Below are positions 23,670 through 28,750 of a stretch of DNA of 64,000 nt, piece by piece. The notes under the pieces are model-generated. The model was not told the origin of the DNA, ran no database searches, and saw only the letters and a list, made by a program, of their open reading frames with translations. The position numbers were made by a program, and so were the translations under genes. The stretch's first letter is position 1. Every line of letters starts with the position of its first letter. The stretch is from Catellatospora vulcania (GTDB lineage: Bacteria > Actinomycetota > Actinomycetes > Mycobacteriales > Micromonosporaceae), in assembly GCF_009720385.1 (NCBI RefSeq), contig NZ_WARX01000017.1, positions 62,001 through 126,000 on the forward strand, in the 5' to 3' direction.

Positions 23670-24293
23670 TCAGCGCTGCCGCCAGAGTTCGGTGATCGGG
23701 ATGTCCAGCGACGCCAGCAGGCGGCGCAGCAGCGGCAGGGAGAGCCCGACGACGTTGCTGTGGTCGCCCTCGATGCGCTCGACGAAGGGACCGCCCAGCC
23801 CGTCGATGGTGAAGGAGCCGGCGACCCACAGCGGCTCACCGGTGGCGACGTACGCCTCGATCTCGTCGTCGCTGAGGTCGGCGAAGTGCACCACGGTCGA
23901 GCCGACCTCCTCGGCGACCCGGCCGGTGTGCAGCTCCACCAGGCAGTGGCCGGTGTGCAGCACGCCGCTGCGGCCGCGCATGGCCTGCCAGCGCTTGAGC
24001 GCCTCGTCGGCGTCTTCGGGCTTGCCGAGGATCTGCCCGTCGAAGGCGAGGACCGAGTCGCAGCCCAGGATGAGCGCCCGGGTGGGGGCCTCGGCGCTGT
24101 GCCGCAGGCGCTCGGCGACGGCGTGCGCCTTCATCCGGGCCAGCACCGCGCTGAGCGCCTCGGCCGTGGTCGCCTCGACGGCGTCCTCGTCGACGCCGCT
24201 CACGATCACCTCGGCGTCGATGCCCGCCGAGTCGAGCAGGGTGCGCCGGGCCGGGCTCGCAGAGGCGAGGATGAAGGTCGGTCGAGCTGCCAT
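23670..24293 (-). CDS. maf: Maf nucleotide pyrophosphatase
   Basis: 207 residues from ATG 24293, with TACGCT seven bases upstream (leaderless). Motifs of the family: ILASASPARRTLLDSAG, VDEDAV, LILGCDSVLAFDGQILGKPEDADEA, and GSFTIDGLGGPFVERIEGDHSNVVGLSLPLL. Maf proteins hydrolyse non-canonical or unwanted nucleoside triphosphates to monophosphates. In mycobacteria maf follows accE; here a secretion cassette separates them. Confidence 0.93.
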   Translation of the reverse strand: MAARPTFILASASPARRTLLDSAGIDAEVIVSGVDEDAVEATTAEALSAVLARMKAHAVAERLRHSAEAPTRALILGCDSVLAFDGQILGKPEDADEALKRWQAMRGRSGVLHTGHCLVELHTGRVAEEVGSTVVHFADLSDDEIEAYVATGEPLWVAGSFTIDGLGGPFVERIEGDHSNVVGLSLPLLRRLLASLDIPITELWRQR

Positions 24294-24355
24294 GCAGGGC
24301 AGCGTACCGGTCGCCGCCCCGGGTGGCCGCGCCGTGCGGCGCGGCGCACCGGGGG

Positions 24356-25498
24356 TCAGCGGCGCTTGCGCAGGACCAGGAACACCACGACGGCGACGAC
24401 GATCAGGACCCCGCCGACGAGCAGCACGACCAGCAGCCCGACGCCCAGGAAGAGCTTGCCGGTGTCCGGCTGGCCGGGGATCGAGGGCAGGGAGACCTCG
24501 ACCGAGGGCGCGGTCGAGGGGGCGACGGCGGACGGGCCCGCGGCCGGGGCGGTCAGCGCAGCCACCGGGTCGATGAGCCCGAAGCCGTAGTCGTTGTCCC
24601 GGCCCGGCTGCCCCTTGTCCTGGGCGGTCCGGGTCAGCCGCTCCAGCACCTGGTCGGCGGTCAGGTCCGGGTACTTCGACCACACCAGCGCCGCGACGCC
24701 GGCCGTGATGGCGGTCGCCGGGCTGGTCCCGCTGGACCGCCGGTACTGCGTGTTCGCGGATTTGTTGATGCGGCTGGTGCTGGTGATGTCGACGCCCGGC
24801 GCGACGAGCTGCACCTCGGGGCCGCGCACCGAGACGGCGGCGACGGCGCCCTTCTGGTCGACCGCGCCCACCGCGACCGCACCGGGGTAGCGGCCCGGGG
24901 CCGCGACGTAGAAGTTGGCCGGCTGGTTGCCCGCGGCGGCGATGACCAGCACGCCGGCCGCGTGGGCCCGCGCCACGGCGTTGATCAGCACCGAGGAGTC
25001 GGCCGAGGGGAACGACTCCGAGATGGAGATGATCTTCACGCCGCGTTTGACGGCCTCGTCGATGCCGATGGCGATGGCATCGCCGCCGCCGTGGCCCTTG
25101 GCCGTGGAGATCCGGATCGGCAGGATCTTCGCCTTCGGGGCCAGGCCGAGCACGCCGTCCTTGCCGCCGGCGCCGTGGCCGTGGGCGGCGATCAGGCCGG
25201 CCATGTTGGTGCCGTGGCCCTCGTCGTCGCCCCAGCCGTCGCCGTCCCCGCCGACGATCGTGTCGAAGCCCTTGAGCACGTTGCCGGTCAGGTCGGGGTG
25301 CTTGCCCTCGACGCCGCTGTCGATGACGGCGACGGTCACGCCTTCGCCCTGGCTGATGGCGTGCGCCTCGCTGACGTGCAGGAAGGGCAGGTACCACTGG
25401 TCGTTGCGGTACCGGTCGGCGTGGGCGGGAGTGCCCACGCCGACCGTGGTGACGGCGGCGAGCAGGCTCACCGCCGCCAGACGTGCGGCGAATCTCAT
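24356..25498 (-). CDS. mycP: Mycosin: type VII secretion-associated subtilisin-like protease
   Basis: 380 residues. Signal peptide (about 1-27, cut after AHA), then a subtilase domain with the triad Asp60 (VAVIDSGV), His95 (EGHGTNMAG) and Ser259 (SSGTSPAT). A Pro/Ala-rich linker leads to a C-terminal membrane helix (about 345-375) and a short basic tail. This is the mycosin layout, anchored with its protease domain outside the cytoplasm. Its ATG overlaps the stop of the upstream substrate gene (ATGA), so the two are coupled. The ESX core genes eccB, eccC, eccD and eccE are not in this window. Confidence 0.92.
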   Translation of the reverse strand: MRFAARLAAVSLLAAVTTVGVGTPAHADRYRNDQWYLPFLHVSEAHAISQGEGVTVAVIDSGVEGKHPDLTGNVLKGFDTIVGGDGDGWGDDEGHGTNMAGLIAAHGHGAGGKDGVLGLAPKAKILPIRISTAKGHGGGDAIAIGIDEAVKRGVKIISISESFPSADSSVLINAVARAHAAGVLVIAAAGNQPANFYVAAPGRYPGAVAVGAVDQKGAVAAVSVRGPEVQLVAPGVDITSTSRINKSANTQYRRSSGTSPATAITAGVAALVWSKYPDLTADQVLERLTRTAQDKGQPGRDNDYGFGLIDPVAALTAPAAGPSAVAPSTAPSVEVSLPSIPGQPDTGKLFLGVGLLVVLLVGGVLIVVAVVVFLVLRKRR

Positions 25499-26754
25499 CG
25501 AGCGAGGCCGATCGCCGGACCCGGGTCCACCGGACCGGGCGCGTCCGGCGCGTCCAGCACCGGCGCGACGCCCTGATCCACGGCCCACATGGTGTCCGGA
25601 TCGAAATCGGGATCGTCGGAGTCACGACGTTTGCCCGCACCGGGCGCACCGACCCCGGGCGCGCCCAAGCCGTTGGCGCCGCGGCCGCTGACCGTGCCCG
25701 CCGCACCGCGGCCGCCAGCACCGCCGCCCGGACCGCCGATCATGCCGCCGACCGGGTTCGCGCGCGCCCCCGCAGCGCCGGCGCGCGCGCCCATGCCGCC
25801 ACCGGGAGCGCCGCCGATGACACCGCCGGCGGGCATCGCGCGGGGCGCGTTCGCGTTCGGCCCCAGGCCGCCGATGACCGGGCTGGTGCCGATGGGCTTG
25901 CCGCCCACCCCGGGCAGGCCGGGAATCGGCGGCGGAGCACCGATGACAGGGCCGGTGCCGAACGGCGGCGTGCCGCCGGGGGTCACCGGGCCGGGCACAC
26001 CGGGGATCGTCGGCGTGGGCGTGGTCGGCGTGGGGGCCGGGGCGAGCCCGGTCAGGTCCGGGCCGATCGCCACCGGTACGGGTGCCAGCGTCGCGCCGGA
26101 CACCGTGGGCGTCGGGGCGATCGCGCCGCCGAACGGCGTCACCGGCGGGATCACCGGCGGCACCACGCCGCCGTAGTCGTTGTCGCCCTCGCTCTGGTGC
26201 CCGCCCGGGGGCAGGTACGGCTTCGGCGGGGCCATGCTGACCCGGACCAGGGACAGGTCCGCGGACAGGCCGCGCATCACGCCGCGGGCCTCGTTCAGCT
26301 TGCCCTGCAGGAACTTCTCCGGCGTCTGTCCACTCGGCAGCGCCACCGGCTGGTGGTTGCGCACGGCCCGGTCGATGCGGTCGTACTCGTCGCGGATCGG
26401 CTTCAGCTTCCGCTCCGCCTCGCTGAACGCGGCCGGGATGTCGCTGGAGTACTGGTGGTTCTGGGTGGACACGCGGGCCACGTCCTCGACCGCCTTGATC
26501 AGGTCGTCGAGTTTGGCCAGGTAAGCCTTGGCGGCGTCGCTGGACTCCGGCGGCCAGGCCTGCGCCAGCTTGTCGCGGTACGTCTCCAGCCGGCTCTTGT
26601 GCAGGTACGCCAGCTCGCCGGCGCGCTTCCAGCCGGACGCCTGGGTGTAGTGGGGCGTCAGCTGACGGCCCGCCACCAGCTCCCACATCTGCTGCATCGA
26701 CTTGCCGTACCAGTTGGTGCCGGCCGGGGCGCGGTCCTCGGGTGGGATGGCCAT
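25495..26754 (-). CDS. EspB/PPE-like type VII secretion substrate with Pro/Gly-rich tail
   Basis: 419 residues. The first 175 are a helical bundle: NWYGKSMQQMWELVAGRQL, AWPPESSDAAKAYLAKLDDL (a WxG-like turn at Trp67), and EYDRIDRA, with Tyr124 and Asp128 giving the YxxxD secretion motif. Then comes a long Pro/Gly/Ala/Thr-rich region with many GG and PP repeats, and an acidic end (DSDDPDFDPDTMWAVDQG). No signal peptide is present. The start overlaps the previous stop by one base (TGATG), and the end overlaps mycP. I infer an ESX-exported protein that may be processed by the mycosin. Confidence 0.75.
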   Translation of the reverse strand: MAIPPEDRAPAGTNWYGKSMQQMWELVAGRQLTPHYTQASGWKRAGELAYLHKSRLETYRDKLAQAWPPESSDAAKAYLAKLDDLIKAVEDVARVSTQNHQYSSDIPAAFSEAERKLKPIRDEYDRIDRAVRNHQPVALPSGQTPEKFLQGKLNEARGVMRGLSADLSLVRVSMAPPKPYLPPGGHQSEGDNDYGGVVPPVIPPVTPFGGAIAPTPTVSGATLAPVPVAIGPDLTGLAPAPTPTTPTPTIPGVPGPVTPGGTPPFGTGPVIGAPPPIPGLPGVGGKPIGTSPVIGGLGPNANAPRAMPAGGVIGGAPGGGMGARAGAAGARANPVGGMIGGPGGGAGGRGAAGTVSGRGANGLGAPGVGAPGAGKRRDSDDPDFDPDTMWAVDQGVAPVLDAPDAPGPVDPGPAIGLAR

Positions 26755-27338
26755 CAGTAGTCCCCTCCGGTGGTGGTCGTGGTGCCACCCGTCGGGTTCA
26801 CCTGCGGGATGGTGGTGGCCGGCGTGGTCGTGGCCGGCGTGGTGGCGGCGGGCGGCTGCGTGGTGGTGGCCGGCTGCGTGGTCGCGGGCACCTGCGCGGT
26901 GGTGGGCACCACCACGGTGAGGTTGCGGTTCACGTCCTGCGCCTTGGCCGCGCCGAGCGCGTCGGCCTCGCCGTACTTCTTGCTGATCTCGCGGGCCGCG
27001 GTGACGAACGCCAGCACCGCCTGATCGTGCTTGAGCAGCGCGTCGGAGGTCTGCACCAGCAGCTCTCGCTGCCAGCCCAGACTCGAGCACAGCTCGATGA
27101 AGTCGGCGTGCGGATCGGCCACCTTCACCGACATGTCCTTGAAGACTTCCTGCGCGTGCGGCCGGTAGTCCTTGGTGTGCTCAGTCTCCAGCGCCTCGGC
27201 GAAGTCGACGAGACTCTGCAGGTCCACGGCGAGGGAGCCCTCGTCGTAACCCGTCATCACGTTCGCCTTGGTATACCCGCTCTCGCGACCGTAGTCGCGC
27301 AGCCAGGCAGGTCCTTTGTCCTCTTCGGGCAGACCCAT
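26754..27338 (-). CDS. Small ESX-type secreted protein with YxxxD motif and Thr/Pro-rich tail
   Basis: 194 residues, first gene of the cassette. The helical part (about 35-130) ends in KKYGEADALG, where Tyr122 and Asp126 form the YxxxD motif; LGWQRELL may be the WxG-like turn. Residues 140-194 are a low-complexity Thr/Pro/Gln region ending in Thr- and Gly-rich sequence. No signal peptide. Its partner is probably the next gene, as ESX substrates are usually exported as helical-bundle heterodimers. A possible -10 box, TAGTCT, lies at 27422-27417. Function beyond this is unknown. Confidence 0.7.
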   Translation of the reverse strand: MGLPEEDKGPAWLRDYGRESGYTKANVMTGYDEGSLAVDLQSLVDFAEALETEHTKDYRPHAQEVFKDMSVKVADPHADFIELCSSLGWQRELLVQTSDALLKHDQAVLAFVTAAREISKKYGEADALGAAKAQDVNRNLTVVVPTTAQVPATTQPATTTQPPAATTPATTTPATTIPQVNPTGGTTTTTGGDY

Positions 27339-27474
27339 CTCGCACGCCCTCCCCAGGGGTTCTCGTCCGCGATCGGCGGTGCCGCGGTCAGGTGACCAAC
27401 GCGGTCCAGCGCTAGCAGACTACCGAAATGGGGCAAGGATGCACACCGGGCTATCGGCCGTGCCCGTCCGCTGG

Positions 27475-27675
27475 TCAGCGGGGCAGGCCGGAGCTCCGCC
27501 ACGCGCCCGGTCCCGCCGCGGTCACCGCGGGCAGGCCGCTGCGCCACCACGCGGACACCGGGGCCGCGGGGGCCGGTGCCGCCGCGGGCCGGGCCGAAAG
27601 CACCGCCACCAGGGCGGCGACCTCCTCGGCCGTCGGCGTGCCACGTCCGATCCGGATCATCGGCTGCTCCGTCAT
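27475..27675 (-). CDS. accE: Acyl-CoA carboxylase epsilon subunit
   Basis: 66 residues. MIRIGRGTPTAEEVAALVAVLSARPAAA, an Ala/Pro linker, and the ending AWRSSGLPR match the small actinobacterial AccE/PccE subunit, which stabilises the alpha-beta acyl-CoA carboxylase complex. It begins one base after the NYN-gene stop codon, so all three genes (accD, NYN, accE) can be one transcript. The gene is short and easily missed. Confidence 0.87.
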   Translation of the reverse strand: MTEQPMIRIGRGTPTAEEVAALVAVLSARPAAAPAPAAPVSAWWRSGLPAVTAAGPGAWRSSGLPR

Positions 27676-27676
27676 C

Positions 27677-28639
27677 TCAACCCTCCCCGTTCGGCCTGGC
27701 CAGGCCGAACTCCCGATACACCCGCGACCAGAAGCCGTCGCGGACCCACAGCCGTGCCTTCTCGAAGGGGCGCAGCGAGATGCCCAGCTCCTTCTCCGCC
27801 TCCACCAGCAGCTCCTTGTCGATGACCGTCGGCAGCAGCGGACCCGGCAGCAGGTCGCCGATGTTGTCACGGCCCCGGGTGAGGATCCACTTCTGGGCCA
27901 CGTACTCGCCGATGTCGAGGATCTCGGCGCGCTCCGGCGGCTGCGGGTGGGCCCGGCGCGCCGCCGGCACCGGGCGCGGCTCCGGGGGAACCGAGACCTG
28001 GGCTGCGGGCAGCGCGATCGCGGGACGGCCGGAGAACACCTCGGCGGGTGTGGGGGTGCGGATCCGCCCCGTCGCCGTGAAATACGGCCGGACGAACTCC
28101 GCGTCCAGCGTGTACACCGTGTCGCTCTCCCAGACCAGCCGCTCGGCCTGGTTGGTGCCGTACGGCGGCTCGACGCCCCACAAATGCACCCGCACGCCGT
28201 AGCTCTGCGCCGCCTCGACCGCCGACAGCATGTCCTCGTCGCCGGCGACCAGCACCGCGTCGGTGACCGAGCGGTGCCGGGCCAGCGTCTCCAGATCGCT
28301 GCGGATCTGCGCGTCGACGCCCTTCTGCTGCCCGCGCAGGTTCAGGTTGCCCAGCCGCAGCTTGACCTGCGCCATCTGCGCGATGACGCGCTGGTCGATG
28401 GTGGGCACCCGGTCGCGTGCCGCGTCGAACCAGTACAGCCGCAGCAGGTCGACGCCGTAGCAGCTCGCCGCCTGCGCCATGAGCGCGTGAATCATCCGCT
28501 CGGCGTCCACTTTGAACTCGGAGCGGTTCGACGTGCCGAGCAGCAGCTCCCCGGAGGCCGCGTACAGGTAGCCCACGTCCACCAGCACCGTGTACCGGCG
28601 CGGCAGCAGGTGACGATCGGCAGGCTCCTGCACGGTCAT
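27677..28639 (-). CDS. NYN-domain protein (predicted PIN-like ribonuclease)
   Basis: 320 residues from ATG 28639. The NYN fold (about 15-190) shows its acidic residues: YTVLVDVGYLY, WFDAARD, KGVDAQIRSDL, and VLVAGDEDMLSAVEAAQSYGVRVHLWG. The C-terminal part (about 225-320) contains EILDIGEYVAQKW and a helical stretch resembling an OST-HTH/LOTUS-like region, though that is uncertain. NYN proteins usually cleave RNA with metal ions. It sits between accD and accE with one-base spacing to accE. AACGAT six bases before the ATG may be a leaderless -10 box. Confidence 0.83.
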   Translation of the reverse strand: MTVQEPADRHLLPRRYTVLVDVGYLYAASGELLLGTSNRSEFKVDAERMIHALMAQAASCYGVDLLRLYWFDAARDRVPTIDQRVIAQMAQVKLRLGNLNLRGQQKGVDAQIRSDLETLARHRSVTDAVLVAGDEDMLSAVEAAQSYGVRVHLWGVEPPYGTNQAERLVWESDTVYTLDAEFVRPYFTATGRIRTPTPAEVFSGRPAIALPAAQVSVPPEPRPVPAARRAHPQPPERAEILDIGEYVAQKWILTRGRDNIGDLLPGPLLPTVIDKELLVEAEKELGISLRPFEKARLWVRDGFWSRVYREFGLARPNGEG

Positions 28640-28750
28640 CCCGACATCGTTACACAATGACCCGTCGGCGTGAACGTTCTGCCACATGACCGTCACTCAA
28701 CGATTAACAGGCGTCGTCACAGCGGAGTGCCGAACTGCCCGACACCGGCG

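What the first reader, a model, noticed from the sequence alone, without database searches (positions are those of the whole stretch)
24356..27338. Three-gene ESX cassette (two YxxxD substrates plus mycosin) inside the conserved accE-maf locus
In mycobacteria the order is GtrA, PH protein, birA, accD5, accE5, maf. The same order is here, except that three overlapping genes stand between accE and maf: two helical proteins with YxxxD motifs (Tyr122/Asp126; Tyr124/Asp128) and low-complexity tails, and a full mycosin. No eccB, eccC, eccD or eccE lies in the window, so the cassette is either served by a distant core system or acts alone. The coupling of a substrate pair to its own protease is a possible dedicated export-and-processing module.
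Basis: partly seen in the sequence, partly recalled or inferred. Interest (0 to 1): 0.72.

Follow-up and report, generated by a model that had tools for sequence, protein, structure and literature searches.

The report
ESX substrate pair with own mycosin
Between two housekeeping genes of a soil actinomycete lies a three-gene unit that encodes a pair of likely secreted helical proteins and a membrane protease of the type VII secretion machinery; the same trio recurs in related bacteria, sometimes inside the secretion locus and sometimes alone, so each substrate pair seems to travel with its own protease.

Summary
Between accE and maf of a Catellatospora genome stand three overlapping genes: A (194 aa), B (419 aa) and a mycosin (TIGR03921, 286.1 bits, cut-off 278.75). 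YxxxD is kept in 25 of 25 aligned A proteins, a Trp at the helical turn in 23 of 23 B proteins, and the catalytic residues in 16 of 16 mycosins. One correction: the YxxxD of B is not conserved (Asp in 4 of 23). B is the PPE-like partner; A is the YxxxD, possibly PE-like, partner. B ends in a conserved tail (PGPxIG in 32 of 34 loci). 'Acts alone' is unlikely: the genome encodes EccB, EccC, EccD, EccE and an Esx pair elsewhere. The new part: the trio recurs. All 21 paralogous loci examined carry A-B-mycosin; 10 lie directly after eccC, 11 show no core gene nearby. Mycosin and B trees recover the same acc-maf and core-linked groups; in four of four genomes compared, no partner was swapped. Best reading: a PE/PPE-type pair exported in trans by a shared ESX core, with a dedicated mycosin. 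Secretion and cleavage are untested.

The parts
26754..27338 (-). gene A: 194 aa, helical hairpin with invariant YxxxD (Y122-D126, codons 26961-26975) at the end of the second long helix, then a Thr/Pro-rich tail; possible PE-like/EspC-like partner
25495..26754 (-). gene B: 419 aa, PPE-like helical N-terminal domain, Gly/Pro-rich linker, conserved C-terminal tail
26185..26733 (-). PPE-like domain of B (the piece folded); Trp67-Pro-Pro lies in the turn between the two long helices
   Evidence: AlphaFold mean pLDDT 90.1; ranks 1-9 in the PDB are PE-PPE entries; Trp 23 of 23
25498..25605 (-). last 36 residues of B: conserved tail, consensus W..G-V-A-P-V......DPGPAIG..R at the very end
   Evidence: PGPxIG in the last 15 residues in 32 of 34 distinct loci whose B end is in the stretch; Trp and Gly upstream invariant in the 20 rows, which had been selected for PGPxIG; related ends in other classes
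24356..25498 (-). mycosin: signal peptide, subtilase domain with Asp60, His95, Ser259, Asn191, Pro-rich stalk, C-terminal transmembrane helix
   Evidence: TIGR03921 286.1 bits against cut-off 278.75; catalytic residues 16 of 16; signal peptide and helix read by eye
27475..27675 (-). accE (acyl-CoA carboxylase epsilon), upstream flank
   Evidence: PF13822 46.1 bits
23670..24293 (-). maf, downstream flank
   Evidence: PF02545, TIGR00172

Best explanation
The cassette is a type VII (ESX, T7SSa) substrate-protease module. A and B form a PE/PPE-type heterodimer: A carries the YxxxD signal and B is the PPE-like partner, with a flexible linker and a conserved C-terminal tail. The pair is exported in trans by the eccB-eccC-eccD-eccE core encoded elsewhere in the genome. 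The mycosin of the module is made with the pair, is Sec-exported and membrane-anchored, joins the outer side of that core, and engages or cuts B (linker or tail) as it emerges. The module and the eccC-linked trios descend from one substrate-pair-plus-mycosin segment; one copy came to lie between accE and maf early in the history of the family. Shown: gene order, homology, conservation, co-inheritance, and presence of a core in the genome. Inferred: pairing of A with B, export, docking of the mycosin, cleavage, and which copy came first.
For: Mycosin passes the curated cut-off, with its catalytic residues intact in 16 of 16. B folds like PPE: ranks 1-9 in the PDB are PE-PPE entries (PPE41, PPE15, PPE4 by title and chain length), probability 0.99-1.00, TM up to 0.74. 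YxxxD of A: 25 of 25 and 41 of 41 trios of all classes. A core is present in the genome: EccB, EccC, EccD, two WXG100 proteins and EccE, all over their cut-offs. Ten of 21 paralogous trios lie directly after eccC. Of 41 trios, 39 are A-B-mycosin and 2 B-mycosin-A, each on one strand. Mycosin and B trees both separate acc-maf from core-linked trios. Distance correlations: mycosin-B 0.84, mycosin-A 0.77, A-B 0.88; 0 of 2000 shuffles as high. EccB is in all 118 of 150 family genomes in which A was found.
Against: Neither A nor B of the window reaches any Pfam or NCBIfam cut-off. No PDB match of B reaches E 0.001 (best 5.1e-3). The model of A is weak (mean pLDDT 69.0; PE25 only at rank 25 with E 3.7). 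The core of this genome has two mycosins of its own, so a third may be redundant; EccB is also present in genomes without the trio, so its presence does not prove use. In mycobacteria mycosin protease activity is dispensable for secretion and the only known substrate is EspB (PMC5082899, passages). The distance correlations partly reflect shared species history, and the branching among classes differs between the two trees; the acc-maf group of the B tree has support 42. No expression, secretion or cleavage data exist here.
Confidence: 0.6

Rival explanations
1. The mycosin of the cassette is a structural cap or spare stabiliser of the common ESX core, with no special relation to A and B; the three genes stay together only because they descend from one ESX locus segment and are translated as an operon.
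For: In mycobacteria mycosins are needed for complex stability while their protease activity is dispensable (PMC5082899, passages); a MycP5 trimer caps the EccB5 chamber (PMC8131196, passages, one from the abstract). The genes overlap.
Against: Acc-maf, core-linked and orphan trios keep their own mycosins over large divergence, with no swap in the four of four genomes compared that have two trios. The catalytic residues are intact in the 16 of 16 acc-maf mycosins aligned. In 11 of 21 paralogous loci the trio is kept together with no core gene found in the 11-20 kb fetched.
Confidence: 0.25
2. The cassette acts without an ESX core: the mycosin is an independent cell-surface protease and A and B are cytosolic or differently exported partners.
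For: No EccB, EccC, EccD or Esx match lies in the 24 acc-maf stretches searched (window included), or in 11 of the 21 paralogous loci.
Against: EccB is present in 149 of 150 family genomes and in every genome where A was found; this genome has a full core; ten paralogous trios sit directly after eccC; A keeps YxxxD and B has a PPE-like fold.
Confidence: 0.07
3. A and B are not substrates but a regulator or chaperone pair of the core (for example an adaptor that brings the mycosin to the core).
For: The end of B is kept while its linker drifts, as expected for a docking peptide; A and B lack a recognisable effector domain.
Against: YxxxD kept in 41 of 41 A proteins is the signal of exported ESX substrates (recalled; the passage of PMC11217815 speaks of a C-terminal signal sequence on PE without naming the motif). 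A, B and the mycosin change more at the protein level than maf and accD, as secreted proteins tend to.
Confidence: 0.08

Closest known systems
PE-PPE heterodimers of mycobacteria (PE25-PPE41, PE8-PPE15, PE5-PPE4)
   Same: Two adjacent genes; one partner with an invariant YxxxD after its second long helix (A), the other with a PPE-like helical fold (B); low-complexity extension on the PPE-like side.
   Different: No Pfam PE/PPE match over cut-off; the turn reads mostly W-P-P; B ends in a conserved DPGPAIG-type tail; a mycosin gene follows directly; the host family has no mycolic acids (recalled; PMC4791881 says so of the Micromonosporales species it studied).
EspB and MycP1 of ESX-1
   Same: A helical substrate and a mycosin known to cut it (PMC5082899, passages).
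   Different: [quoted passage not shown] here they are split over A and B, and the mycosin is coded next to its presumed substrate, away from the core.
ESX-4 type loci of non-mycolate actinomycetes (Newton-Foot 2016, PMC4791881, passages)
   Same: eccB, eccC, eccD and mycosin; Salinispora tropica (same family) is listed there with ESX-4 clusters.
   Different: In the passages read, pe and ppe are credited to plasmid-borne ESX and to clusters of mycolic-acid bacteria; here a PPE-like gene with a YxxxD partner sits right after eccC in ten Micromonosporaceae loci, and orphan trios exist.

Membership tests
mycosin (MycP) | curated family model TIGR03921 over cut-off | tested here: met
   286.1 bits, cut-off 278.75
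mycosin (MycP) | subtilase Asp-His-Ser triad and oxyanion Asn | tested here: met
   invariant in 16 of 16 (rows with incomplete or broken frames had been left out); residues checked in the window protein
mycosin (MycP) | signal peptide, C-terminal transmembrane helix with basic end | tested here: inconclusive
   seen by eye in the sequence (hydrophobic N-terminus ending AHA; C-terminal hydrophobic stretch ending RKRR); no predictor was run
mycosin (MycP) | disulphides of the mycobacterial enzymes (recalled) | tested here: not met
   no cysteine in the window mycosin; 0-3 in the matched part of the 41 trio mycosins. The curated model does not require them
mycosin (MycP) | coded in an ESX core locus | tested here: not met
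   no EccB, EccC, EccD or Esx match in the acc-maf stretches searched; ten paralogous trios do lie in core loci. Membership rests on the curated model, not on place
PPE family (for B) | PPE fold of the N-terminal domain | tested here: met
   ranks 1-9, probability 0.99-1.00, best E-value 5.1e-3
PPE family (for B) | Pfam PF00823 over cut-off | tested here: not met
   no match for B of the window; B-like proteins of other families reach at most 21 bits, cut-off 26
WXG100-like superfamily (for B) | sequence link to a curated WXG100 model | tested here: inconclusive
   window B 12.8 bits against 27 for PF25547; the core-linked B of L127, found by the B profile at E 1.4e-18, passes with 29.1, that of L120 just fails with 26.6
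PE/EspC-like substrates (for A) | YxxxD after the second helix | tested here: met
   25 of 25, 41 of 41 over all classes; helix 81-122 ends at Y122
PE/EspC-like substrates (for A) | PE fold or Pfam match | tested here: inconclusive
   model pLDDT 69.0; PE25 at rank 25, TM 0.74 over the target but E 3.7; no Pfam match
PE/PPE pair | four-helix heterodimer, EspG chaperone, ESX-dependent export | not testable with these tools
   no complex prediction and no experiments were possible
EspB | WXG motif and signal in one chain | tested here: not met
   the Asp of the B motif is present in 4 of 23
T7SSa (ESX) | EccB, EccC, EccD, EccE in the genome | tested here: met
   all over cut-off, elsewhere, on contig C3

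The most novel reading that the evidence does not exclude
Mycosins work as exchangeable, substrate-specific caps: several substrate pairs share one EccB-C-D-E channel, and each brings its own mycosin, which replaces or joins the resident one and recognises the conserved C-terminal tail of its own PPE-like protein. Channel specificity at the outer face would then be set by the protease and not by the core.
Probability: 0.2. Interest if true: 0.85.

Novelty: new variant of a known kind. Interest (0 to 1): 0.6.

Why it matters
The papers consulted place PE/PPE pairs in mycobacteria and other mycolic-acid bacteria (PMC1660551 and PMC4791881, passages). A PPE-like pair wired to a mycosin across a family outside that group would push this substrate type back in time or show that it spread. 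The role of mycosins is an open question: they are essential for secretion while their protease activity is not (PMC5082899, passages). Trios that each keep their own mycosin give a natural test of whether mycosins recognise substrates, in soil bacteria. The conserved end of B is a concrete candidate recognition signal.

Tried and rejected
Rejected: 'two YxxxD substrates' (Asp of B in 4 of 23); 'no core in the genome'; B as EspB-like single-chain substrate. Tried without result: PDB sequence profiles of A and B gave no match that looked related (best E 0.21 and 1); Pfam on all members of A and B gave nothing relevant over cut-off for the window proteins; the promoter and terminator scan of 24250-27800 found no promoter-like site and one terminator-like site inside the mycosin gene on the other strand. 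dN/dS in this G+C-rich genus is probably compressed and was used only as a rank: against L049 the ratios are A 0.27, B 0.37, mycosin 0.27, maf 0.15, accD 0.06; against L052 and L053, A, B and mycosin are 0.60-0.74, maf 0.28-0.43, accD 0.11-0.13. My own simple gene caller missed genes in low-complexity stretches, so counts rest on profile and tblastn searches.

Rows dropped and limits. The alignment of B leaves out L063 and L078, whose start did not fit my pattern; both have the Trp. The mycosin alignment leaves out L074, L076, L078 and L048 and loci without a complete frame. The 20 rows of the tail alignment had been selected for PGPxIG, so the invariance of those five columns there is by selection; the count without selection is 32 of 34 distinct loci, with three further loci cut by a contig end, and the two exceptions (L076, L077) have a broken or shortened frame. 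Of those 34, the loci held only as about 3.5 kb were not checked for accE and maf. Paralogous loci were chosen from listed second matches (7 for B, 13 for A, plus the one of this genome), not at random. Empty sites: 15 loci from 16 genomes with weak or no A match; the 16th, at a contig start, was not fetched. Searches with the B profile scored only 8 candidates per genome, so those counts are lower bounds. The trees use 41 trios; acc-maf loci of near-identical Catellatospora and those cut by a contig end were left out, and L074, L076, L077 entered by their profile-matched parts.
Full report
What is there. The window belongs to a Catellatospora genome: genomes marked 'same genus' include contigs whose lengths equal those of named Catellatospora records, and the genus is in Micromonosporaceae. 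Reading from high to low coordinates: two GtrA genes, a PH-domain gene, a biotin-ligase gene, then on the minus strand accD, an NYN-domain gene, accE, A (26754-27338), B (25495-26754), a mycosin (24356-25498) and maf. A and B overlap by one base, B and the mycosin by four, so the three are likely translated as one unit (inference).

The proteins. The mycosin passes its curated model (286.1 bits, cut-off 278.75). Asp60, His95, Ser259 and Asn191 are invariant in the 16 of 16 rows aligned. B has no family over cut-off, but its N-terminal domain gives a confident model (mean pLDDT 90.1). The nine best PDB matches are chains of 162-174 residues of PE-PPE entries (PPE41, PPE15, PPE4), with probability 0.99-1.00 and best E-value 5.1e-3; no match reaches E 0.001. 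In the model the invariant Trp67 (23 of 23) stands in the turn between two long helices (26-59 and 66-125 of the modelled piece), the place of the WxG motif in that superfamily (recalled). A has a weaker model (mean pLDDT 69.0), with two long helices (40-69 and 81-122), the second ending at Tyr122. PE25 appears only at rank 25 (TM 0.74 over PE25, E 3.7). The YxxxD of A is invariant in 25 of 25. So the pair is best read as asymmetric, A the signal-bearing partner and B the PPE-like one.

The end of B. After a variable Gly/Pro-rich linker, B ends in W..G....(D/N)PGPxIG close to its last residue. PGPxIG lies in the last 15 residues in 32 of 34 distinct loci whose B end is in the stretch; the two exceptions have a broken or shortened frame. 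In the 20-row tail alignment, whose rows were selected for PGPxIG, an upstream Trp and Gly are invariant as well. Other classes end differently: five of five B proteins of one orphan group in PG(G/P/T)G(I/V)(L/I/V)G, ten of ten core-linked B proteins in G(R/K)(A/T/S)LGQ, the six of the other orphan group in a longer, unlike end, and some of other families in GPALG. That a short end is kept while the linker drifts suggests a binding or cutting site; this is inference.

Distribution at acc-maf. With the A profile, 118 of 150 family genomes match (37 of 44 genera); this counts paralogs too. Of 20 fetched loci of other genera chosen for an A match, 15 have accE-A-B-mycosin-maf, 2 (L066, L072) have accD-B-mycosin-A-accE-maf, and 3 end at a contig end after A-B. 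In 15 loci from genomes with weak or no A match, no trio gene was found (0 of 15), and in 8 of 15 the accE and maf matches lie within about 160 bases of each other; in the other seven the gap is larger (3) or accE was not found (4). So the cassette is present or absent between two housekeeping genes. With the B profile, 65 of the 76 matching genomes in the order sample of 397 are of the own family, this genome included. In the class sample 4 of 394 match, one of them outside the order. Both counts are lower bounds. Of 11 loci fetched outside the family, 8 have the B-like gene next to eccC, and none has a maf, accD, accE, NYN or biotin-ligase match in the stretch.

The core. This genome has EccB, EccC, EccD, two WXG100 proteins and two further mycosins over their cut-offs and EccE (111.1 bits, cut-off 108), in two places on contig C3 about 540 kb apart. 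EccB is in 149 of 150 family genomes; the one without it also lacks A. This speaks against a cassette that works in the absence of any ESX core, but does not show that this core serves it, since genomes without the trio have EccB too.

A recurrent module. This genome holds a second trio on contig C6, beside an F420-ligase gene. Twenty further paralogous loci were fetched (7 chosen by a second B match, 13 by a second A match). All 21 carry A, B and mycosin in that order on one strand. In 10 of 21 the trio lies directly after eccC; in 11 of 21 no EccB, EccC, EccD or Esx match was found in the 11-20 kb held. A YxxxD is present in 41 of 41 A proteins of all trios compared. Over these 41 trios, 39 are A-B-mycosin and 2 B-mycosin-A.

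Common descent. Quick maximum-likelihood trees put acc-maf mycosins on one side of a branch (support 92) and core-linked mycosins on one side (99); orphan trios fall in three groups. The B tree also sets apart core-linked (100) and acc-maf proteins (42, weak) and splits the orphans in two. How the classes branch from each other differs between the trees: core-linked mycosins lie with one orphan group, core-linked B proteins with another. Distances agree (mycosin-B 0.84, mycosin-A 0.77, A-B 0.88; 0 of 2000 shuffles as high), but this test does not remove shared species history. The better control is genomes with two trios: in four of four compared, the nearest relative of each A, B and mycosin was of its own class, never of the other trio. 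Two core mycosins of this genome fall outside the trio mycosins; a third lone mycosin-like protein (L060) falls among them on a long branch.

How it most likely works. A and B pair in the cytosol; the YxxxD of A and the PPE-like surface of B lead the pair to EccC. The pair passes the EccB-E channel made elsewhere in the genome. The mycosin, exported by Sec and anchored by its C-terminal helix, meets it on the outer side. In the ESX-5 structure a MycP5 trimer caps the EccB chamber with active sites facing inward (PMC8131196, passages), which gives a place for such an encounter. MycP1 cuts EspB, yet protease activity is not needed for secretion (PMC5082899, passages). All steps after gene order and homology are inferred.

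Novelty. Searches for Micromonosporaceae with mycosin and type VII secretion (no paper), MycP with substrate, PPE and Micromonosporaceae (no paper), and PPE with Micromonospora and type VII secretion (3 papers in the listing, of which by title only PMC4791881 is on ESX evolution) showed no description of this module; some searches were seen as listings. Most subscription journals are not in that library. PMC1660551 (passages) states that PE and PPE are not found outside Mycobacterium; PMC4791881 (passages) reports them in other mycolic-acid bacteria. I rate the finding a new variant of a known kind: known parts in a recurrent, co-inherited arrangement.

Noticed in passing
27677-28696: An NYN-domain gene lies between accD and accE; a match is kept in some relatives and not found in others, where other genes, one of them kinase-like by eye, fill the interval.
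   Followed up: partly
L057:9367-12142 (own genome, contig C6): Second A-B-mycosin trio of this genome, beside an F420-0 gamma-glutamyl ligase gene; its B ends in a longer, different tail, and the piece of its mycosin that was scanned scores 247.4 bits, under the family cut-off.
   Followed up: yes
L060:9138-10301 (own genome, contig C10): A lone divergent mycosin-like subtilase (175.6 bits for TIGR03921, cut-off 278.75) next to helicase-like genes (by eye); no ESX core gene recognised nearby.
   Followed up: no
L062:11203-17746 (own genome, contig C7): A second FtsK/EccC-like ATPase of 1401 aa, followed by small genes and a kinase-like gene (by eye, not family-tested); perhaps another type VII variant.
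   Followed up: no
L072:5229-6932: A further mycosin-like gene (567 aa) on the other side of maf in one relative, in addition to the trio.
   Followed up: no
L054:7304-9463: A 719-aa protein without NCBIfam match, coded next to a core mycosin; similar sequences lie beside all ten core-linked trios, so it may be an ESX accessory protein.
   Followed up: no
L074, L076, L077: Reading frame of B or of the mycosin is broken or shortened; sequencing error or decay not decided.
   Followed up: no
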